A stretch of DNA of 64,000 bases from Thalassomonas actiniarum (GTDB lineage Bacteria; Pseudomonadota; Gammaproteobacteria; Enterobacterales; Alteromonadaceae), in the NCBI RefSeq assembly GCF_000948975.2, contig NZ_CP059735.1, positions 5,454,603-5,518,602 on the forward strand. The letters are read 5' to 3'. Shown in pieces: positions 5,881 to 50,000 of the stretch. Position 1 is the stretch's first letter, and each line of letters opens with the position of its first letter. The position numbers and the translations under genes are program-made. A model generated the notes under the pieces. That model was not told the DNA's origin. It searched no databases and saw nothing but the letters and a program-made list of their open reading frames with translations.

Positions 5881-6984
5881 ATGAATACGAAGGAGTTGTA
5901 TCAAAAAAATACGGACATTCCTCAATCACACGAAATGGATTTCAACTACAGGGTGCTTTTGCTTACACGTATCATGTGTATCGCAATCACCTTCAGTATT
6001 TTATTTGCCCTGATGTCTTCCCTGGGCATAAGTCAAATCGGCGAGCAGGCCACCAATATAGACTACGGCTATGCCCTGCTGCTGCTTGCCCTGCTCATCA
6101 TCTTAAAAAAGAATCATAACCATTTTTCCCTGGTGCTGACGACCTTTTTACTGATCAGTTTTCTGGTGTGTCTGTCGGCACTGGTTACGGTTTTATTCGA
6201 TGAGTTTCGGGCCATCTGGTTTTATTTATTGATCCTGGTCGCCTTTATGCTTGGCGGACAAAAATCCGGGATCTTTTTTACCTTATTGTCCCTGCTGGCC
6301 ATTATCGCGACCCATGTCTTCCTGGCACCTTTTGGCACCGCGACTTTAGCCAGCATAGTTGTCGGCCTGGTGGTTATGTCCCTGGTATTGGCAGCTTTTA
6401 GCAACCAGTTAAGCCGTTACCTGCAGCATATTGAAAAACAAAATGCTGAATTAAATTATTTGGCCAATAAAGATCCCCTGACCGAAGTGCTGCACTCGAA
6501 AAACTACTGCCAGTTAACCAAAAAATATATTGAACGGGCACAAGAGCTTAATGAAAACCTCTCTATCTTATATGCCGGCCTGGACAACCTCGAACGCCTC
6601 AAGGAGAAATACGGCAGCCAAATCCGTCACCTGGCGCTGCAACATGTCATTACCATCATCAAAGAACACCTCCACCACCAGGAGTTGCTGACCCAGGTGG
6701 GAGAAGAGAAAATCTGCATCATTTTGCCCGAGCGGGACGCCATCGCCGCCCAGTCTTTAGCCATCAATATCAGAAATGCGGTCCGTGAGCGTTTATTTGA
6801 CTACGGCAAAAACAAAATCCCCCTGACCCTGAGCATAGGTATTGCCGCCTTAAACGACAGCGACGAAGAAATCCGCTCTATTCAGATAAGGGCAGATAAA
6901 GGTTTGATAAAAGCCAAGTTTTGCGGTGGTGACGAGGTAAAAATCTGCCATTTTTTTGAAGAGTTATCCACGGAAAAACTCTAG
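5881..6984 (+). CDS. Multi-pass membrane protein with degenerate GGDEF domain
   Basis: 367 residues. The N-terminal half (about residues 25-180) has five or six hydrophobic segments, then a short coiled linker and a GGDEF-type domain starting near NKDPLTEVLHSKNY (residue 197). At the position of the GG[DE]EF loop the protein reads VGEEK, and the usual DxDxFK metal segment is replaced by YAGLDNLERLKEKYG, so diguanylate cyclase activity is doubtful. The fold is retained (LTLSIGIAAL, then RADKGLIKAK). Inference: a catalytically inactive receptor or regulatory GGDEF. The GGDE string near the C-terminus is outside the active-site position and is coincidental. The start has no strong ribosome-binding site and could lie a few codons downstream. 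Confidence 0.85.
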   Translation: MNTKELYQKNTDIPQSHEMDFNYRVLLLTRIMCIAITFSILFALMSSLGISQIGEQATNIDYGYALLLLALLIILKKNHNHFSLVLTTFLLISFLVCLSALVTVLFDEFRAIWFYLLILVAFMLGGQKSGIFFTLLSLLAIIATHVFLAPFGTATLASIVVGLVVMSLVLAAFSNQLSRYLQHIEKQNAELNYLANKDPLTEVLHSKNYCQLTKKYIERAQELNENLSILYAGLDNLERLKEKYGSQIRHLALQHVITIIKEHLHHQELLTQVGEEKICIILPERDAIAAQSLAINIRNAVRERLFDYGKNKIPLTLSIGIAALNDSDEEIRSIQIRADKGLIKAKFCGGDEVKICHFFEELSTEKL

Positions 6985-7083
6985 CCGCTTTTGCAGAACT
7001 TTGTCTATAGTAGGAAAAAGCGCCGTCCTTAGGTATACTGGCGGCCAGTTAGTATCAATCCGCTCAAAACTAAAAGTAAGTTT

Positions 7084-19981: not shown

Positions 19982-20974
19982 CTACTCAGTATATAAATGT
20001 AACGACTGATGAGTATTGCACCATTTTCGCTCGGTTTTTAATGCCCAACGGCCCAGATTTTCCGGGCTGCCGGCAGCACTGATAAAGTGACGATTGAAGT
20101 CTTTTATCACTTCCAGCCAGTCTTTATCATTAATATTTAGCCGTGCAAATAGCCGCTGGATATCAGGCGGAATAAAGCCGCGTTTATCCTCTCGTACACA
20201 ACGACCGGTCCATTCCACCAGGCTAAGGTAATCAAACAATTTAAAAGGTAAACCTGTGCCAGGCTTACCGTGAGGTTTATAACCAGTGAAAGGGGCAATT
20301 GTTATTGGTTGTGCTTGCTGCATTTTTTTAGCGGTGGCAAGCGCCTTTATACGCTGCTGGATACTGGTAAAGTCAGAGGTTTCCGGTGTAACACATATAT
20401 CAGCCCGTATTGGGTTCAAATCAACATAAGTCATACAAGCGAGTAATGCGCTATCATCGAGTAGTGCTTGCGACTTAAAACGCCCTTCCCAAAACCGTCC
20501 TTTACACTTATCTTCCTTATTGGCCTGTACCGCAATAGATTCATTTAAGCAACGCATGAACCAGCCCAGCTCGAATAAGCGTTTACGCCACTTTTCAATC
20601 AGCTCAAGTGCTTTATCTTTTTCAGCTTCTGTGGTTTTAGTTTCCGTCAAATATCGGTCAACCAAAGGATGCCCTTTAAACAACTGCATCCAGCGCAAAG
20701 CAACTTCCCTACTTCCCCACTGCAGAGCTTCCTGAGCGTTTACTCTCAACACCAGATGATAGTGGTTACTCATAATGGCATAAGCACATATATCAATAGC
20801 AAATACATCTGCAAGCTGTTTGGTTTTATCCACCAGCCACTGTTTTCTGTGATCAAAGTTTTGTCCGGTACTTTTATCTTCACCACACAAAAACGCCCTA
20901 CGCACACAGCGACAAATGCAGTGATAGTAAGGCGTTTCTTCAAGGCAAACTTGAAGTTTTCGGGCACGGGTCAT
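19982..20974 (-). CDS. REP-associated tyrosine transposase (IS200-like, Y1)
   Basis: 330 residues, the longer type of Y1/HUH transposase. [16 protein letters not shown] near the N-terminus matches the family start; AYAIMSNHYHLVLRV contains the HUH metal-binding motif (HYH). CKGRFWEGRFKSQALLDD and ACMTYVDLNPIRA are family hallmarks, and the catalytic Tyr is expected in the latter. It cleaves single-stranded DNA at hairpin repeats. Flanking repeats of REP type support the RAYT assignment. The frame is intact. It lies just outside the CDI locus with a partial duplicate of its 5' end upstream. Confidence 0.93.
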   Translation of the reverse strand: MTRARKLQVCLEETPYYHCICRCVRRAFLCGEDKSTGQNFDHRKQWLVDKTKQLADVFAIDICAYAIMSNHYHLVLRVNAQEALQWGSREVALRWMQLFKGHPLVDRYLTETKTTEAEKDKALELIEKWRKRLFELGWFMRCLNESIAVQANKEDKCKGRFWEGRFKSQALLDDSALLACMTYVDLNPIRADICVTPETSDFTSIQQRIKALATAKKMQQAQPITIAPFTGYKPHGKPGTGLPFKLFDYLSLVEWTGRCVREDKRGFIPPDIQRLFARLNINDKDWLEVIKDFNRHFISAAGSPENLGRWALKTERKWCNTHQSLHLYTE

Positions 20975-21939: not shown

Positions 21940-22371
21940 TTATGACAAAGGGTTATCAATAGCATAAAACTTACAGCTTTCATTCATGAATTGTTTGATT
22001 TCACCAGGAAAAGTAACACCTACATTTAAAGACTTTAAATGTAAAATTTTTTGATGGATATAATCAAAATACGCTCGTTTTTTTACTTCATCAATTTCAT
22101 TAATAAATGTAGATAAGTATTTCTTGTAATATGGAACAGCCCAATCATAAGAAGCACTTAATAATGTTCTAACATCTTCAGGTGAATTAATTATCCTATA
22201 TGCTTTTTCAAACAACAGGACTTGTTCATGGACAGTTAAATTAATCAAATATTTATCTTTGAAATCTTTATATTCACCATGCGTATTCCAAGCAATTGTT
22301 CTATATGGGTAATCACCTTGTATCAAGCTTATGAATAACTCTACAGTAGTATCTTTTAGCATATCATTCAT
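21940..22371 (-). CDS. Candidate CDI immunity protein
   Basis: 143 residues from the ATG at 22371, which starts one base after the CdiA stop codon and suggests translational coupling; the frame stays open upstream (GTG at 22395), overlapping cdiA. Mostly alpha-helical, soluble, no membrane segment: VELFISLIQGDYPYRTIAWN, LTVHEQVLLFEKAYRI, then TFPGEIKQFMNESCKF. No family recognised. Position immediately after a CdiA toxin tail is the standard place for cdiI, so the role is inferred from position. Confidence 0.7.
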   Translation of the reverse strand: MNDMLKDTTVELFISLIQGDYPYRTIAWNTHGEYKDFKDKYLINLTVHEQVLLFEKAYRIINSPEDVRTLLSASYDWAVPYYKKYLSTFINEIDEVKKRAYFDYIHQKILHLKSLNVGVTFPGEIKQFMNESCKFYAIDNPLS

Positions 22372-22372
22372 C

Positions 22373-25300
22373 TTACGGATTATCGGTACCATCACTATTT
22401 AAATTATTATTTTTAGGAATAGATACATCATCATATCTATGGACTGTTGGGTTGGTTATAGGATTAATTATAACAGTTTCATTATTTACTCTTTGTCTTC
22501 CTCCACCAAGAGCTGCTGGCCCACCGATATCATTGAGGTAATTTGAATTAAATACTGGTATATCCAATTTATTTAGCTGATCAGCAATATCAAAATCTAT
22601 GCGATAATTTTGTCCATCATATGCTTCATAACCACCTTGTGTTTCAGTCGATTTACCATTAATTGAGAGCACCTGCCTTGTTTCTGTTATTCCTTTACCT
22701 GCGACATCCTCTGTAAAGGTCATATATTTTCCAGGAGGAATCGTTATTTCATTTTTTAACACAAAATTCCCGTTAGCATCATATATAGGATTACCTTCAA
22801 AATCTTTATCTACGTAATATTCTATAAATGATTTTTCATCTACAACAACAGATGTTCTATCAGAATTAGACAAAGCATTTTGATTAACTTTGTGCTCCAA
22901 TAAACGACTAGGATCTGTAATTACTTCAGGTTGACTGACAGAACCTGTTGGGTTGCTTGGAACTGCAGTTACTGGATTAGACACATTTTCTAAACCTTTC
23001 ACTGGCACATGCGGTTGAGGTGTAGTTTCAAAAGGCGTAGTTTGTTTAGGTATCTTGTTACCAACATAATCATCCCAATTAACAGGACGAAATGCGGTTC
23101 CCCCATCATCTGAGTTACTATCTCGTACGACAACTGTTTTTGAGTTTTGATCTAAATAAACGGTACGTCCATCAGGATAATACCTAACATCTGTTGGATT
23201 ATTCAAAACCCCCTCAACATGGTTTTGAAATTCACCTTTACTATTAAACTCTGGGAATTCATCACCATGTTTATCCCATGCATGGCCATTAGTTATTTGC
23301 TCTGAAGCTAATTGGTGATTTAATGCTGGTGAATTGATATTGTCAGTGCTTCCAGTCCTATCTGGAACATTAGTATCAGAACCACCTTTATTAATTGCAC
23401 CAATCCCTGCACCCAGCCCTACAACCTCAAGGCCAAATTCAGTACCACTTTGTAATGTCGTTGATAAGCCACCACCTAGCCGATCATCAATCTCCATGAA
23501 ACGTTCATGAGTTTCAACATCTACACCTTGCACACCAGCAGCAATGTATTTAGCAGTTGTTTCCTGAACATTTCTGATTACATCCCCAAAAGCAGTTTCG
23601 ACAGCAAACTCTTTACCTACTTCCAGTGCAGTTCTAACAACGCCACCAGTAAGCATACCAACAGCCAGCAAAGCAGCTTCTGCCTGCTCTACAGGTAAAG
23701 TCGCAACAAATGCTTTGGTTGTATCTAAACCAACAATCACTTTCTGGGCTGGTGTTATGTCATTACCTTCAGTAATCGTAATTTCTAATGGTCCACCATT
23801 AAGTTCTCTCGTGGTATTTTCACTATTAGCGACATTGTTTTGTTCGCTAATATTTTGCTCCCCGGTTGAGGCCTCAGCACCAATTAAGTCACCATTGGCA
23901 AGCATATTGCCGATAATGGCGTAAAATTCAGGGTTAGTGAGCAAGTCTTTCGCAACACTGGGATCTACGCCTCTTTGGATCAGGTTATCAAGAGCTTGCT
24001 CCTCTTTCCCCTGTAGCAATGCTGCGACCTTAGGATCATCAATGTCATACATAAACTGGGTAACTTCCTTTACCCCTAAAGCATTGGCAACATCACCTAT
24101 CGTTTCACCTACGGCCTCTGCCGCTTGGGCAACCTGCTCATGGTCCACCGTAAGGTCAATATTGCCTTCCTGGCGATCTATGCTGTACAGCTCTTTATCA
24201 ACATTGTCGGTATCGCGATTGATGTTGATATCTTGTGTTTCCCCTTCGCCTAAGGTTTCACCGCCCACGGTAACGTTACCTTCACCAATCGTGGCCAGGG
24301 TTTTACCTACATCAATGCTGCTGGTGTTGCTGTAGGTGTACTGGCTGGAGTTCACGTCCAGGCTGTTGCTGCCGGTATCGCTGTCGCCTGTCGGTGAAGT
24401 GGCATTGGGGTCGTTGACCGTACCGCCGATACCGACATTGGCATTGATGCCCGCATTTTGCTGGCTGCTATAGCTGGTATTGGTCAGGTCGGTAAAGGTC
24501 AGCGTGTCGGTACTCAGGTTCAGGTTGCCGGTATCGTTGCCTGCTTCGTCCCTTGCGGCAATCAAGGCGCCGGCAATATTGGTATTGCCGTCGACATTGA
24601 TATTGACTTCACCGCCGCCGGTGATGCTGCTCAGCACCGTTTCACGGGTCTGGTAACGGCCGCTGCTGGTATTCATGCCGCCGTTGACGCTGCCGACACC
24701 GCCGCTGGTATCCCCCAGGTTCGCGGTCGCCACAGCTTCGCCGCCGTTAATACCTGACAAGGCACTGCCTATCGCAGATGAAGTACTGTTCGGTGCTTCA
24801 CTGCCGGCATCAAAGCCAAAACCGCCGCTGATACCAAAACCTTTGTTGCTGCCGCTGGTACGGTTTTGCATCGACTCCAGCGTTAAATCACCGCCGACAT
24901 CCAAATTCAGGTCATTGCTGGCGGCTATATTGCCGCCCTGGATATTGGTATCGCCTGCCGTGGTGATATTGATATCGTTCGCACTTAAAGTGCTGTTATT
25001 GTAGGTGGTGCTTCTGTCGCGGTTTTCATTGCGGTTATAGCTGGCACTCACCGTCGGACCACTTGCGGCACCGCCTAAGGTTTGCGCTATGGTGATATGG
25101 CCGTTTTGCATCTCATAACTGCTGCTTGAGGTATCGCGCGACGCCTGGATATCCAGCGTGCCGGTATCAATATTCAGCTGGTTGCCTGCAAACAGGTCGC
25201 TGCCCTGAATCAGCGTGGTGCTGGTATTGCCCTGCTCGCTGTCACGGCTGTTCAACCCGGTCACGATATTAATGTTGTTACCGCTCACGTTAGAAGCACG

Positions 25301-44440: not shown

Positions 44441-46192
44441 TCAAAAGTTATAGCGAACCGTCAGGTCCAGCTCTTGTTCTTGTGCATTTAAAAAGTCGGG
44501 CACACGCAGCGCCCTGGCATATGACAGGCTCAGGCTAACCCCAAAAATACTGGCCTGGGCGCCGATAACCGAACCCGCGATCCAATCAGAGTTGCGATCC
44601 TGGTATTCGGGTAAATTGGTGGTGCCGACGTCTAAACCGAGAAAAACGGTCACCCCGGGCAGCAAAGCCCACGGGGTTTGTAGCGGCAGATAAAAGTCGT
44701 TTCTCAGGTAACCGCCCCGGTAGCCAAACAAAGAATCGCCGGAGATACCGCGTACCGAATAACGACCGCCGACACTCAGCCCTTCCGAGGCCAGGATCAC
44801 CTCAGGGGAATAAAACCAGTTTAATTGGGAAGAAAATTGCATCGGCTGCTCAGCCAATGTAAAAGAGCCGCTAAAGCCCAGCTCCAGCTGATACTTTATA
44901 AACTGGAAATCGTCTTCAGCATCCGCCAGCTCGCGTTTGGCATCGAACCAGGGCACACTTTTATTGATATGCAGGGCGCCGTTTAAGGTGCCGGCAGGAA
45001 AATACCGGGTGTAGTCCGCCGACAGATCCCAGACATAAATGATGCGGGAAGAGGTATCGAGGAAAACATCTTCAATATAGTTACGGCTTTCTTTACGGTT
45101 AAAAGACAAACCGAGATTAAGCTTATCGGCGCTGCCGCGGTACAAGGTATTTTGCGCAACAAAGCTGCTGTTAAAAGAGGTGCCGTGGGTAAGGAAGTCA
45201 ACGCTGGCCCCCAACACCGTTTGTTCGTATTGGTAATAATTGTTATTGAGGCTAAATAACCAGTAGCCATAAGGCACGCTCGCCACCAGGGAGTAACTGC
45301 GGGATTTCGATTGCGGCAGCTCGTGCTCGCCGATATTGGAAGAAAAAGAACTCACCAAAGAGTCGTTGATGCCGAACAGGTTTTCATAGATAAACGAGGC
45401 ATCAAGCTGATATTCGCCGGTAGCTTCCACCCCGGTATTATTGATGCCGACAGAAGCCCGCCAGTTGCTTGCCTCCTGGTTGTCGACCCGCACCACAGAG
45501 CTGCCCTGGCTCTGCCCGGGGATTAACGCTGTTTTTGCCTGGTTTTGTCCGAGGCGGTTTAAGTTCTCAAGCCCCTGCTCTAAATCCCGCAGGTTTAATA
45601 ACTTACCTGTGCGATCGGGAAAAGCCAACGCCAGCTGCCTTGTCGTCAGCAAAGGCTCTGCACCGTTTTTTTCACCGGCATGTGCTTCTCCTGGAGAAAG
45701 GGCCTGGATAAAACCTTCCAGCACCAGGACATGCAAAGTGCCGTCAGATAAATCCTGCGGCTGGATGTAGGCACGGCTGGTGACATAACCGTGGTTGAGA
45801 TACAGATTCGATATCTCGGAAATCAGCTGATTGATACGATTGAGGCCGATGCACTGATGCTCAAAGCTGGAGCTGATGCTATTAATTTCCTGCTCGCTAA
45901 AGACGGTAACATTTTCCACGATCACCTGGTTGATATCGAAACAGGCGCCGGCATCATCGCTGAGAAAAGCCTGCTCTTGCTCCCGGTACTGCTCCTGCAA
46001 GAAAACATCCTGTTTTTTTAACAGCGGGTCGAGCTGGTTTTTAATGCGATCCTGGCCCTGTTTGATTTGTTTTTCATGATCAGAGAGCTTCTGCTCCTGG
46101 GCATAAAGGCCGGGAGTACTGAAAAGTCCCATCAACAACACCAACAGATGAGTGAAAGCACAAATTTTTATTGGCTTTTGATATAAACGCAT
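44441..46192 (-). CDS. cdiB: Two-partner secretion outer-membrane transporter (CdiB/FhaC family)
   Basis: 583 residues. Signal peptide (about 1-31), a periplasmic helix region rich in Glu/Gln/Lys (about 32-75), POTRA domains (about 80-255; FDINQVIVENVTVF, NLYLNHGYVTSRAYIQPQ, then LNLRDLEQGLENLNRL), and a 16-strand-type barrel (about 265-583) with the conserved VRGI motif (RYSVRGISGD) of loop L6 and terminal Phe. It exports the cdiA product across the outer membrane. It lies 18 bp upstream of cdiA and 102 bp downstream of a small leader frame, and the leader carries a c-di-GMP riboswitch. Confidence 0.95.
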   Translation of the reverse strand: MRLYQKPIKICAFTHLLVLLMGLFSTPGLYAQEQKLSDHEKQIKQGQDRIKNQLDPLLKKQDVFLQEQYREQEQAFLSDDAGACFDINQVIVENVTVFSEQEINSISSSFEHQCIGLNRINQLISEISNLYLNHGYVTSRAYIQPQDLSDGTLHVLVLEGFIQALSPGEAHAGEKNGAEPLLTTRQLALAFPDRTGKLLNLRDLEQGLENLNRLGQNQAKTALIPGQSQGSSVVRVDNQEASNWRASVGINNTGVEATGEYQLDASFIYENLFGINDSLVSSFSSNIGEHELPQSKSRSYSLVASVPYGYWLFSLNNNYYQYEQTVLGASVDFLTHGTSFNSSFVAQNTLYRGSADKLNLGLSFNRKESRNYIEDVFLDTSSRIIYVWDLSADYTRYFPAGTLNGALHINKSVPWFDAKRELADAEDDFQFIKYQLELGFSGSFTLAEQPMQFSSQLNWFYSPEVILASEGLSVGGRYSVRGISGDSLFGYRGGYLRNDFYLPLQTPWALLPGVTVFLGLDVGTTNLPEYQDRNSDWIAGSVIGAQASIFGVSLSLSYARALRVPDFLNAQEQELDLTVRYNF

Positions 46193-46293
46193 AAATAAAC
46201 CGGGTAAAACAGTGAAAAAATTAATTCAATAGCACCCAAAGCAAGCATGATGTCCGGGATTAACCGCCAGACAACACCTTCAATCCGGGCAAA

Positions 46294-46419
46294 TTAAAAC
46301 AAACGACGCTTTAGTTGACAGAAAAAGCCACCCGAGAGGCGGCAAAAAGCGGTACAGGCAAAAGCCAGACAGCACAAAGTAATAGCGGAAAACTGCAGTC
46401 GGGATAACAGATAATGCAT
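46294..46419 (-). CDS. Possible 41-residue leader peptide in the cdiB leader
   Basis: Begins MHYLLSRLQF, very hydrophobic and Cys-rich, ends KRRLF; AAAAGGA lies upstream of the ATG, spaced by about 12 bp. It spans the terminator at 46321-46345, so translation would disrupt that hairpin. No homology known. It may be chance. Confidence 0.3.
   Translation of the reverse strand: MHYLLSRLQFSAITLCCLAFACTAFCRLSGGFFCQLKRRLF
46321..46345 (-). terminator. Intrinsic terminator in the cdiB leader
   Basis: On the minus strand GCCGCC pairs with GGTGGC around TCTCG, followed by TTTTTCTGT. It lies between the riboswitch and cdiB, so it can gate transcription of the locus. Confidence 0.8.
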
Positions 46420-46570
46420 AGATTCTATAAATCCTTTTAACTTAAAACTTTATCAAGGAATTTTGATCAGCTCCCATACAAAACGGCATTGCACAGGTTT
46501 AAAAAGATATAAACAGAAGATCGGACACAGACAGAAATGCAGATCCGGTAATAGTGAATGATTACTCGGG

Positions 46571-46668
46571 ACATTAACCTAGGTAGTCCCACTATCTGCC
46601 CGTATTTCAGCAGACTGGTGACTTTGCGTCCAGACCTCGCGATCTGTTTGCCATTATCTCGTTAAATT
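46571..46668 (-). ncRNA. Cyclic di-GMP-I riboswitch (GEMM) upstream of cdiB
   Basis: Minus-strand sequence contains the GEMM core: AATGGCAAAC, a P2 hairpin CAGATC-GCGA-GGTCTG with a GNRA tetraloop, then GGACGCAAAGTCACC, a P3 hairpin GTCTGC...GCAGAT with AGTGG, and a closing P1 (TTAAC with GTTAA). The G before CAAA, which contacts the ligand, is present, favouring c-di-GMP over cGAMP. A GTCCC at the 3' end (46568-46572) could pair with GGGAC inside P3 and compete with the aptamer. It is about 380 bp upstream of cdiB, and a terminator lies in between. Confidence 0.88.
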
Positions 46669-46923
46669 TTTATTACACAATAATGTAAATTTCGGCGAAA
46701 TATTAACAGATCGTAACTGGTTGGACAACAAAATTTAATAATTAGTGTACTTTTATTCACCAATTTGTTGCTAATAATCAAGCAGGCAACGAACGGATAT
46801 AACACCTAAGTCCCCCCGGTTTCACAAACAAAAAGCAATTCCCCCTTAAACCCGGCCATCAGGAAGACAAAAAATTAAGCACTTTTAATAAAGCATCTTC
46901 AAGATTAATTGCAACGAACACGA
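46669..46923. other. Divergent promoter region between cdiB and the mannanase gene
   Basis: AT-rich, no coding frame. It must hold the promoter for the riboswitch-cdiBA transcript (minus). No convincing -35/-10 pair can be named with confidence. Confidence 0.4.
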
Positions 46924-46937
46924 TGTAACCGGTTGCA
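46924..46937. promoter_or_regulatory. LacI-type operator 1
   Basis: TGTAACCGGTTGCA, a palindrome with one mismatched end, about 112 bp upstream of the mannanase gene. One of five sites of the same sequence around the mannan genes. Confidence 0.75.
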
Positions 46938-46946
46938 AGACGATAA

Positions 46947-46958
46947 GTAACCGGTTAC
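46947..46958. promoter_or_regulatory. LacI-type operator 2
   Basis: GTAACCGGTTAC, a perfect palindrome, centre 22 bp (about two helical turns) from operator 1. Confidence 0.8.
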
Positions 46959-47048
46959 AGTGTGGTCGTAGTCTTCAAATATGCAGGCAACTTTTATAAC
47001 AAGCAGATTTATATGACATCGGCAAAAAGAGATTGAAGGGTAATGTTT

Positions 47049-50000
47049 ATGAAACAAACTAAGCTCCTGAAAAGGTCCGGAAAAAACAATAATATCGATA
47101 CCAGTATAAGATTTAAAAAACTCAGCCTAACCACCTTAATCACCCTGGCCTTAACGGCTTGCGGCAGCGACATAGAGCAGGCCAGCTCTGATCAGGTCAA
47201 CTCCTGGTCCAGAACACCTGTTGCCGAGCCGGCCGGTGACAACTGCCCGTTCGGGGGAGAAAAGGTGGAATCGGGCGCCGATACCAATAAGGATGGTGTC
47301 CTTCAAGACAGCGAAATCAACCAGGTAGACTACCTGTGTAGCGATAGCGCCAGCACCAGTACTTATGTTAATGATATGTCTGACTTAAGCGATAACTTCT
47401 GGCGCAGCTTTAACCTGGCAACAGAAGATAACAGCACCGCAGGGACCGACGATGCCATCTACCGCTTCCAGGGGGATTTATTCCGCTTCAAACGCAGTGA
47501 CAATACCGCAGAGTACCTGGATTACCTGATCCCCGGCGCCATCGAAAACGCCGTGGTTTCCGCCTATTACTGGGAAGGAGACACGCCAGAAGTAGCGCCT
47601 TTTAAAATGTTTGCCTCTAAGGTCGGCGCCAATAACCCGGATGACTGGATTGAACTCACCGTGACTCAGGAGAAAGTCGGCGATTATACCCAGAGAGCCA
47701 GCGATGAGGATCAAAACGATGAAGAAAACGACAACTGGATCAAGGTAGACTTTACCGCTGCCGATATCAAAAACCAGGCAGGCGAAGACTATGACTTCAT
47801 CCGGGTGCAGTTCCCCGTTGTTGCCTCCGGCCAGGCCTGGCATCCGCAGCTGGGTAACCTCGAAGTCGCCTTTAGCAGCAACACAGAGCTTGCCGCCGAC
47901 AATAATGCCGCGCCCGACCCGGCACAAGACCCAAGCACCGTAGTGATCCCGGTAACACAGACAGACGGCCTGGATAATTTTAACCAGGTATTCTCCCACA
48001 GCGATTCACTTTTTTTTGACAGCTCAGATGGCGACGGCGAAAGCCGCTTTAACGGGGATACCAGCCGGTTAAAACGCGGCACCAACACGGAAGAATATGT
48101 TCAGTACCAGGTTTATGGCGAAGTCAAAACCATAGAAGTTGTCGGCTACTACCACGCCTTCGATGAATCAGAACCTTTCACTATTTTAGTGTCGAAAACC
48201 GGCGGCAATAATGAAGCCGAGTGGACCGAGCTCACCACAACACACATTCAGGCAGAAGGCGATGCGGTAGAAGACTGGACCACGCATACCTACACCGCCA
48301 CCACCAGTGAACAGCAAGTAGACTTTGATTTTGTCCGCGTGGTCTTTCCGGTCATTGCTGATGACAGCAAGTCATGGCACCCGCAATTAGGCGATGTCAA
48401 CATCACTTACCATCAGGATTACAGCCTGGACAGCGACAATGTCTCACGGGACTTATCCGGTGTCGAAATAACCGGTGGACAGGCACCACTGGCACTGGAA
48501 CAAAGCATCAAAGATACTATGCTGGCCAATGGCATCAGCACCCAATTTGACTGGTATATCACCCGGGGCGAAGGCAGCAACGGTATTGGCGACAGCAACA
48601 AGTTATACCAGGATGACAGCGGCCAGGAATTCCGTTTTGTTTCCTACAACACCCCTAACCTGGTTATGACCGAAGATCCCATCTGGGATATCACCCCGGT
48701 ATTTGAACAGGAAGACGGCATCAAAACCATCAAGGATATGGGCGGCAAGGTCACCCGTATCTATACCCTGGGTATATTTGATGCTTCCAGCCCGGACAAA
48801 GTCAAGCATATCAGCTGGGATGAAAACGGTGCCCTGGTCTTTAATGAAGATATTTTTGTCGCCATGGATAACCTGTTGGCCATCGCCAATAAGCACGGCG
48901 TGCGGGTGCAAATTCCCTTTATCGACCGTAGCTTATGGTGGGGCGGCATAGCCCACTTTGCCCAGCAATACGGTAAAAGCTCCCCGGAGTTTTTCACCGA
49001 CCGCACCACCATAGACGCCTTCAAAGAAGTGATCTCCTATGTGCTTAACCGGGTGAATACCGTGACCGGCATCGCCTACAAGGACGATCCTGCGGTTTTT
49101 GCCTGGGAAACCGGCAACGAATTACGCTCGGACGACCTTGCTGCCATCGAAAGCTGGACCAGCGAGATAGCCGCCCATATCAAGTCTATCGACAGCAAAC
49201 ACCTGGTGATGGACGGCCGGGAAGCCCGCAGTACCCGCTCTTCCGGTGAATATGAAATGCGCATGTCCAACAGCGCCATGTTCGACAGCAATATCGATGT
49301 CTTGTCTAACCATTATTACGGCGACAATTTTTCCGCCCGCATCATGCAGGATTTAAATACTATTTCCGGGGTGAAACCCTTTGTGGTCGGGGAAATCGGT
49401 TTTGGCGACCTGGAAATGGCCGACGCCATAGATACAGTGATCAATGAAGGTTCCACCGGCATTTTATTATGGAGCCTGCGTACCCATGATATCAACGGCG
49501 GTTTTAAAGATCACGACGACGGCTCAGCCCACTCCTACCACTGGCCGGGTTTTGCCGACAACTTTGTTTATAACGAAGTGAAAATCATGGAAAATGCCTG
49601 GGACAAGGCCTATGAGATAGACGGTGAAATAAGACCTGCTATCCCTGCACCGGCAAAAGCCCCGGTGATGTTAGCCAGCCCTTCCACCCTGGATATCCGC
49701 TGGCAAGGGGTTACCAGTGCCCGCTATTATGATATTCAACGTTCCGATAACGGCACCGACGACTGGACCCTGGTAGGTGACGACATTGAAATCGGCGCCA
49801 CCACCGCCAGCAATTATATTTTGGCAGACCGCACCGACTCTTTCGGTACAGTACACCCAGATGTAAAACACCAGATCCTGTTCCAGGATGCCACCGCCGT
49901 CGCTAATGAAACTTACTATTATCGCGCCAAAGCCATTAACGAAAGCGGCGAAAGCGATTGGTCAAATGTTATCGGCACCTCGGCCCAGCTGATTGAAAAC

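What the first reader, a model, noticed from the sequence alone, without database searches (positions are those of the whole stretch)
46294..46668. c-di-GMP riboswitch plus terminator gating a giant CDI locus
The aptamer core, GNRA-capped P2 and ligand-contacting G are all present on the minus strand, about 380 bp before cdiB, and an intrinsic terminator lies between aptamer and gene. Direct riboswitch control of a CdiB/CdiA locus would tie contact-dependent killing or adhesion to the sessile lifestyle. The aptamer-terminator distance of about 225 nt is longer than usual; a GTCCC at the aptamer 3' end can pair with GGGAC inside P3, giving a possible second switching mode.
Basis: partly seen in the sequence, partly recalled or inferred. 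Interest (0 to 1): 0.85.

Follow-up and report, generated by a model that had tools for sequence, protein, structure and literature searches.

The report
c-di-GMP riboswitch before contact-killing operon
A marine bacterium carries an RNA sensor for the "settle down" signal c-di-GMP in front of genes for a giant surface protein that probably delivers toxins to touching neighbours; the same pairing occurs in related bacteria, so killing by contact may be wired directly to the surface-living lifestyle.

Summary
The aptamer is real: minus strand 46661-46578, 62.0 bits to RF03167 (E 3.2e-12) and 61.6 bits to RF01051. The three ligand-contact positions G20, A47 and C92 are kept, so I do not adopt the best-scoring label c-di-GMP-I-GGC. 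The operon is a two-partner secretion system whose 7349-aa exoprotein aligns at 66-91% with three congeners up to residue 6775-7013 and then differs. One congener pairs a deaminase-type domain with a SUKH-type gene. That is the CDI/polymorphic-toxin pattern; no VENN motif occurs. The aptamer precedes tpsB in 4 of 4 Thalassomonas genomes and three Alteromonadales relatives: 7 of 9 close TpsB, 0 of 19 distant TpsB scanned.

The proposed terminator is not supported: chance level (1 found, 1.0 expected), not at that place in 3 of 3 congeners, and inside a small ORF open in 4 of 4 species. The expression platform and direction stay unresolved; I lean to ON. Side result: aptamers with a GCGA/GUGA P2 loop carry another P3 element (11 of 11; 0 of 60 others). 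My searches found no report of a c-di-GMP riboswitch on a CDI locus.

The parts
46578..46661 (-). c-di-GMP-I riboswitch aptamer, GCGA-loop subtype with P3 CCAGUCUG...CAGAUAGUGG in place of the CUAA-type receptor
   Evidence: cmscan RF03167 62.0 bits; RF01051 61.6 bits; subtype table
46661..46666 (-). 5' flank UUUAAC, whose UUAAC can pair with GUUAA (46578-46574) after the aptamer (P1 extension)
   Evidence: read from sequence; invariant in the alignment of 4 species; inference
46420..46577 (-). leader between aptamer and small ORF; strongly conserved in the genus; predicted hairpin CCGAGUAAU/AUUACCGG and a helix that pairs the Shine-Dalgarno of the small ORF
   Evidence: alignment A1 of 46390-46577 and kin, 93% mean column identity; RNAalifold with 2 of 47 pairs compensatory but covariation term +1.06; folds
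46294..46419 (-). 41-codon small ORF (stop included); open in 4 of 4 species, 34 codons in L024 through an in-frame 21-nt deletion; translation not shown
   Evidence: pN/pS 0.32-0.80 over six pairs, weak constraint
   Evidence: 1 found, 1.0 expected; not at this place in 3 of 3 congeners
44441..46192 (-). tpsB/cdiB-like outer-membrane transporter (ShlB, POTRA_2, POTRA_3), 583 aa
22373..44422 (-). tpsA/cdiA-like exoprotein, 7349 aa, TPS domain and haemagglutinin repeats
22376..24100 (-). variable C-terminal region of TpsA counted from about residue 6775 (the boundary is 6770-7013 depending on the relative), putative toxin part; residues 7046-7119 weakly match a solved chain named PT-VENN domain-containing protein
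   Evidence: blastp end points; 8ey4_A, E 0.0024
21940..22395 (-). 151-aa ORF overlapping the tpsA stop, candidate immunity gene
   Evidence: position only; no family hit; inference

Best explanation
The leader of a CDI-type two-partner secretion operon in a Thalassomonas genome carries a functional class I c-di-GMP riboswitch that sets expression of the cdiB-like and cdiA-like genes. Shown by computation: the aptamer, its contact bases, the operon, the variable C-terminus and the conserved linkage. Inferred: c-di-GMP binds and changes expression. It more likely acts through a long structured leader that hides the start region of a small ORF before tpsB, by translation or Rho-dependent termination. 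I lean (about 60:40) to c-di-GMP turning the operon on, by analogy with two riboswitches on surface-protein genes and because the start-codon region of the small ORF is predicted to be more open when the aptamer is folded.
For: Covariance match far above chance. The genome has nine RF01051 sites; of the eight others, three precede a GGDEF protein, a chemotaxis receptor and a motY/fliF operon, two precede DUF3718 proteins and three an ORF without Pfam hit. Aptamer upstream of tpsB in 4 of 4 Thalassomonas and in Alteromonas ponticola, G199 and G773, that is 7 of 9 close TpsB against 0 of 19 distant ones. Different TpsA C-termini, with Toxin-deaminase plus SUKH in G002 and a HopBF1-like kinase domain in G003, two of these three matches below the curated cut-offs. 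Start-codon region unpaired 0.33, 0.47, 0.48, 0.57 free versus 0.50, 0.72, 0.75, 0.83 with the aptamer imposed. Precedents for ON: Vc1 before gbpA, with no apparent terminator (PMC4744006, passages); Bc2 before cap (PMC4933901, abstract).
Against: No expression or binding data. No sigma-70-type promoter was recognised in 46100-47100 (0 found, 2.6 expected). The Shine-Dalgarno of the small ORF is predicted paired in both states in 4 of 4 species (0.00-0.09 unpaired), so the model gives no clear switch. Without ligand or tertiary contacts the aptamer ensemble is 8.8-12.3 kcal/mol less stable than the free one. In L085 imposing P2/P3 changed nothing at the tpsB start. RNAalifold gives the leader a covariation term of +1.06, i.e. 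no net support. Two close TpsB loci (Marinibactrum L011, G125 L042) lack the aptamer. A riboswitch that binds c-di-GMP but does not respond in vivo is known (Bc1, PMC11218506, abstract).
Confidence: 0.8

Rival explanations
1. One reading: transcription is switched at the intrinsic terminator 46343-46327, perhaps with GTCCC/GGGAC as the alternative helix.
For: Hairpin of -10.1 kcal/mol followed by TTTTT in the window. Terminator/anti-terminator control is known for Bc2 (PMC4933901, abstract). Each congener has some terminator-like hairpin elsewhere between the small ORF start and tpsB.
Against: One found against 1.0 expected by chance; not at that place in 3 of 3 congeners although all have the aptamer; about 235 nt from the aptamer and inside an ORF; alternative helix broken in L024.
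Confidence: 0.1
2. The switch is an OFF switch: the ligand-bound leader keeps the small ORF and tpsB silent, so contact killing is used by motile cells, as low c-di-GMP raises TfoY and T6SS killing in Vibrio cholerae.
For: Shine-Dalgarno predicted paired in the aptamer-folded state in 4 of 4 species; TfoY precedent (PMC4858559, passages); a near-identical aptamer precedes a motY/fliF operon in the same genome.
Against: The Shine-Dalgarno is equally paired without the aptamer fold. Precedents on surface-protein genes are ON (Vc1, PMC4744006; Bc2, PMC4933901), and two TPS proteins, CdrA and ExlA, are held at the cell surface at high c-di-GMP (PMC5422565 passages; PMC8472254 abstract).
Confidence: 0.33
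3. The aptamer is a decaying or idle relic, and tpsB is driven from a promoter downstream of it.
For: Bc1 binds c-di-GMP without changing its downstream genes in vivo (PMC11218506, abstract).
Against: Aptamer core and leader nearly invariant in four species while the small ORF drifts; association present in other genera with divergent aptamers; no sigma-70-like site found downstream.
Confidence: 0.1
4. The RNA is a c-di-GMP-I-GGC variant with another ligand, as the best Rfam name suggests.
For: RF03167 scores 62.0 against 61.6 bits for RF01051.
Against: RF03167 consensus reads GACGCGAA; the seven TPS-linked aptamers read ACGCAAA, with A at the 47 position. Absence of the CUAA receptor may explain the score.
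Confidence: 0.05

Closest known systems
Class I c-di-GMP riboswitch (GEMM, Rfam RF01051), e.g. Vc1 upstream of gbpA (PMC4744006, passages)
   Same: Aptamer core, contact bases, long leader without a clear terminator, surface or secreted protein target
   Different: Target is a CDI-type TPS operon; P2 loop GCGA and another P3 element
Bc2 riboswitch before the collagen adhesion protein gene cap of Bacillus thuringiensis (PMC4933901, abstract)
   Same: c-di-GMP riboswitch, ON, controlling a large surface protein
   Different: Gram-positive adhesin, not TPS, no toxin; uses a terminator/anti-terminator
Vc2/TfoY/T6SS in Vibrio cholerae (PMC4858559, passages)
   Same: c-di-GMP riboswitch linked to interbacterial killing
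   Different: Indirect, through a transcription factor and T6SS, favoured at low c-di-GMP; here the riboswitch sits on the delivery operon
cdrAB (PMC5422565, passages) and exlBA (PMC8472254, abstract) of Pseudomonas aeruginosa
   Same: TPS systems controlled by c-di-GMP
   Different: cdrAB through the protein FleQ and the protease LapG, ExlA at secretion; no riboswitch named in what I saw
CdiB/CdiA-CdiI contact-dependent inhibition systems
   Same: TPS transporter, giant haemagglutinin-repeat protein, variable C-termini, following small ORFs
   Different: No VENN motif found; toxicity and immunity untested

Membership tests
c-di-GMP-I riboswitch (RF01051) | Covariance score above gathering | tested here: met
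   61.6 bits, cut-off 35
c-di-GMP-I riboswitch (RF01051) | Contact bases G20, A47, C92 | tested here: met
   Placed by hand on the alignment and the sequence; base list from PMC4744006
c-di-GMP-I riboswitch (RF01051) | GAAA loop with CUAA-type tetraloop receptor (usual, not required: RF01051 still scores above gathering) | tested here: not met
   GCGA loop and CCAGUCUG P3
c-di-GMP-I riboswitch (RF01051) | Binding of c-di-GMP | not testable with these tools
   needs in-line probing
c-di-GMP-I-GGC (RF03167) | G instead of A at the 47 position (consensus GACGCGAA) | tested here: not met
   window has GACGCAAA; that this base gives the family its name is recalled
CDI (CdiB/CdiA) system | TpsB transporter and adjacent giant TpsA with TPS and haemagglutinin repeats | tested here: met
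CDI (CdiB/CdiA) system | Conserved body with variable C-terminal toxin region and following immunity ORF | tested here: met
   blastp end points in 5 of 5 relatives compared; deaminase plus SUKH in G002; the window's own toxin and immunity parts have no family hit
CDI (CdiB/CdiA) system | VENN-type motif before CdiA-CT | tested here: not met
   no VENN in the 7349 aa; that it is not universal in CDI is recalled
CDI (CdiB/CdiA) system | Contact-dependent inhibition and immunity | not testable with these tools
   needs competition assay
Intrinsic-terminator riboswitch | Conserved terminator downstream of aptamer | tested here: not met

The most novel reading that the evidence does not exclude
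A GCGA/GUGA-loop subtype of the class I c-di-GMP riboswitch, with a co-changed tertiary receptor, controls several surface programmes in Thalassomonas (CDI toxin delivery, a motY/flagellar operon and at least one large surface protein) from one signal, with opposite outputs for killing and swimming. The CDI operon has moved or descended with this riboswitch into a second family (G773).
Probability: 0.35. Interest if true: 0.75.

Novelty: new variant of a known kind. Interest (0 to 1): 0.6.

Why it matters
A riboswitch on the delivery operon would mean that the second messenger for surface life sets contact killing directly, without a protein regulator, and would give a simple handle (one contact base) to test when CDI is used. 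The loop/receptor co-change is a natural test of tertiary contacts in a well-studied aptamer. My searches of the held papers (listings seen, and of the three papers that held all terms the matching passages, none about such a link) found no report of a c-di-GMP riboswitch on a TPS or CDI locus. Most subscription journals are not held, so this is no proof of absence.

Tried and rejected
Terminator gating: rejected. GTCCC/GGGAC switch: weak. Complementarity between the aptamer 5' strand and the downstream leader as a common switch: tested against 200 dinucleotide shuffles for each of 15 leaders. Fraction of shuffles at least as strong: L085 0.010, L012 0.035, L041 0.16, the four Thalassomonas tps leaders 0.325-0.69; of the eight other leaders of the genome seven gave 0.335-0.52 and L007 0.005. 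Striking by eye, not general, so not used as evidence. Small ORF as a proven gene: not claimed (the two tpsB comparisons with L023 in that call are void because the frames slipped). The terminator scan of L022 and L024 was empty because of my start-site string; repeated. The receptor pattern was too loose and at least 5 of 30 order-wide loci were read on the wrong strand; one search repeats the count with the listed strands. In one search the core of L112 was misplaced by the script (the P3 with CUAA is visible in the row; counted as without). The constraint for L012 held no pairs, so that row is no test. Of 22 distant TpsB matches with loci, three (L032-L034, two of them fragments) were not scanned, and L043 has only 470 nt upstream. 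Co-occurrence of RF01051 with all TPS genes of the order was not done: one search lists only part of its matches.

Full report
What is there. On the minus strand at 46661-46578 lies a complete class I c-di-GMP aptamer: RF03167 62.0 bits, E 3.2e-12, gathering score 59, and RF01051 61.6 bits, gathering score 35. Its core reads GGCAAAC...GGACGCAAAG...GACUACC. The three bases that contact the ligand in Vc2, G20, A47 and C92 (PMC4744006, passages), are kept; I carried the numbering over by hand. RF03167 has G at the A47 place in its consensus and the window has A, so I read the GGC label as a matter of score: P3 lacks the CUAA-type receptor.

The operon. tpsB (44441-46192) has ShlB and POTRA domains; tpsA (22373-44422, 7349 aa) has a TPS domain and haemagglutinin repeats. 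Against three other Thalassomonas genomes TpsA gives one blastp block from residue 1, at 66% to residue 7013 (G001), 91% to 6775 (G002) and 86% to 6985 (G003), no further match at E 1e-10, and different ORFs after it. Against the more distant G773 and G199 the similarity (38-39% in the best block) ends at 6770 and 6779. In G002 the C-terminus has a Toxin-deaminase match (26.9 bits, below its cut-off of 29.6) followed by a SUKH-type gene (31.0 bits, cut-off 25.4); in G003 it resembles the kinase HopBF1 (55.3 bits, well below the cut-off of 200); G001 and G773 gave no hit. The window's own C-terminus has no Pfam or NCBIfam toxin hit and a weak match to a solved chain named PT-VENN domain-containing protein (8ey4_A, E 0.0024). 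No VENN motif occurs. A CDI-type polymorphic toxin is supported by anatomy and untested in function.

Conservation of the linkage. Rfam scans of loci fetched by TpsB similarity show the aptamer upstream in L022, L023, L024 (three congeners; L023 lies on the contig of L010, Thalassomonas sp. RHCl1), in L012 (Alteromonas ponticola, 48% TpsB, 49.3 bits), L041 (G199, 52%, 56.2 bits) and L085 (G773, 56%; RF03167 52.4 bits, below that family's cut-off; RF01051 55.9 bits, over its cut-off). With the window that is 7 of 9 TpsB of about 40% identity or more; L011 (Marinibactrum, 54%) and L042 (G125, about 40%) have none. Of 19 more distant TpsB loci scanned (L025-L031, L043-L054) none has one; L043 has little upstream sequence and three further distant loci were not scanned. 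As the four Thalassomonas are close kin, the count by lineage is 4 of 6. In a draw of 295 genomes of the order, 12 (the window's own included) had a TpsB match at E 1e-60 or better; in the family of G199, 2 of 152 at E 1e-50; in a draw of the class, only the window's own at E 1e-80 among 369. The pair is thus rare.

The leader. The terminator at 46343-46327 is what a 1-kb stretch gives by chance (1 found, mean 1.0 in shuffles) and is not at that place in the three congeners. It lies inside a 41-codon ORF (46419-46294) with a good Shine-Dalgarno; the frame is open in 4 of 4 species, in L024 with a 21-nt deletion, but constraint is weak (pN/pS 0.32-0.80 in six pairs, against 0.11 for tpsB window-L022). 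The 158 nt between aptamer and this ORF are more conserved than the ORF. RNAalifold predicts a helix that pairs the Shine-Dalgarno, around a hairpin with one compensatory and three one-sided changes, but its total covariation term is +1.06. Partition-function folds pair the Shine-Dalgarno with or without the aptamer, so this computation does not show how the ligand acts; only the start-codon region opens when the aptamer is imposed, in 4 of 4 species. No sigma-70-like promoter was recognised either up- or downstream. I therefore commit to translational or Rho-dependent control in the direction ON with modest confidence. Vc1 before gbpA is similar: long leader, no apparent terminator, positive control (PMC4744006, passages). 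Bc2 before cap is also ON, by anti-termination (PMC4933901, abstract).

A subtype. Of 71 aptamers (40 from G000-G003, G773 and G199, one from A. ponticola, and the 30 best-scoring with a locus from the order draw), 11 have a GCGA (10) or GUGA (1) P2 loop closed by C-G; all 11, and none of the other 60, have CCAGUCUG in P3, while at least 55 of the 60 have CUAA there. The 11 precede tpsB in five genomes, sit in the motY/sigma-54 activator/fliF position in four (operon genes checked in G000 only; L116-L118 recognised by aptamer sequence only), before a lipoprotein-like ORF in G003 (L105) and at an unidentified locus in G002 (L120). They are related copies, so this is one or few evolutionary events. 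A tetraloop-receptor swap is the natural reading; it is inference.

Novelty. The aptamer class and CDI are known. Their direct combination, and the loop/P3 subtype, I did not find in the papers searched (mostly listings). The subtype was not searched for by name, because I know of none.

Noticed in passing
L019 (G000:C1:249215-269209), aptamer at L008 1501-1595 (-): Near-identical GCGA-type aptamer before a motY, sigma-54 response regulator, fliF operon in the same genome.
   Followed up: partly
L014 1001-1089 and L016 (aptamers L002, L004): Two c-di-GMP-I aptamers directly before small DUF3718 proteins.
   Followed up: no
L013 1001-1083 (aptamer L001): c-di-GMP-I aptamer about 310 nt before a GGDEF protein gene, a possible feedback loop.
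   Followed up: no
L018 1001-1084 (aptamer L007): Leader of a NIT-domain chemotaxis receptor holds a stretch strongly complementary to the aptamer core (fraction of shuffles 0.005, one of 15 leaders tested).
   Followed up: no
L020 (aptamer L009): Low-scoring aptamer (40.9 bits) with CGCC in place of the GGC core and GACGGAAAA; perhaps decayed or a variant.
   Followed up: no
window 19982-20974 (-): ORF with weak IS200-type transposase similarity downstream of tpsA (19.2 bits, below cut-off); an ORF of the same length (330 aa) also lies beyond tpsA in G002.
   Followed up: no
G003:C1:5297372-5297453 (-) (L105): A GUGA-type aptamer lies about 4 kb downstream of tpsA in G003 before a lipoprotein-like ORF of at least 453 aa; the window has no second aptamer at gathering score.
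   Followed up: partly
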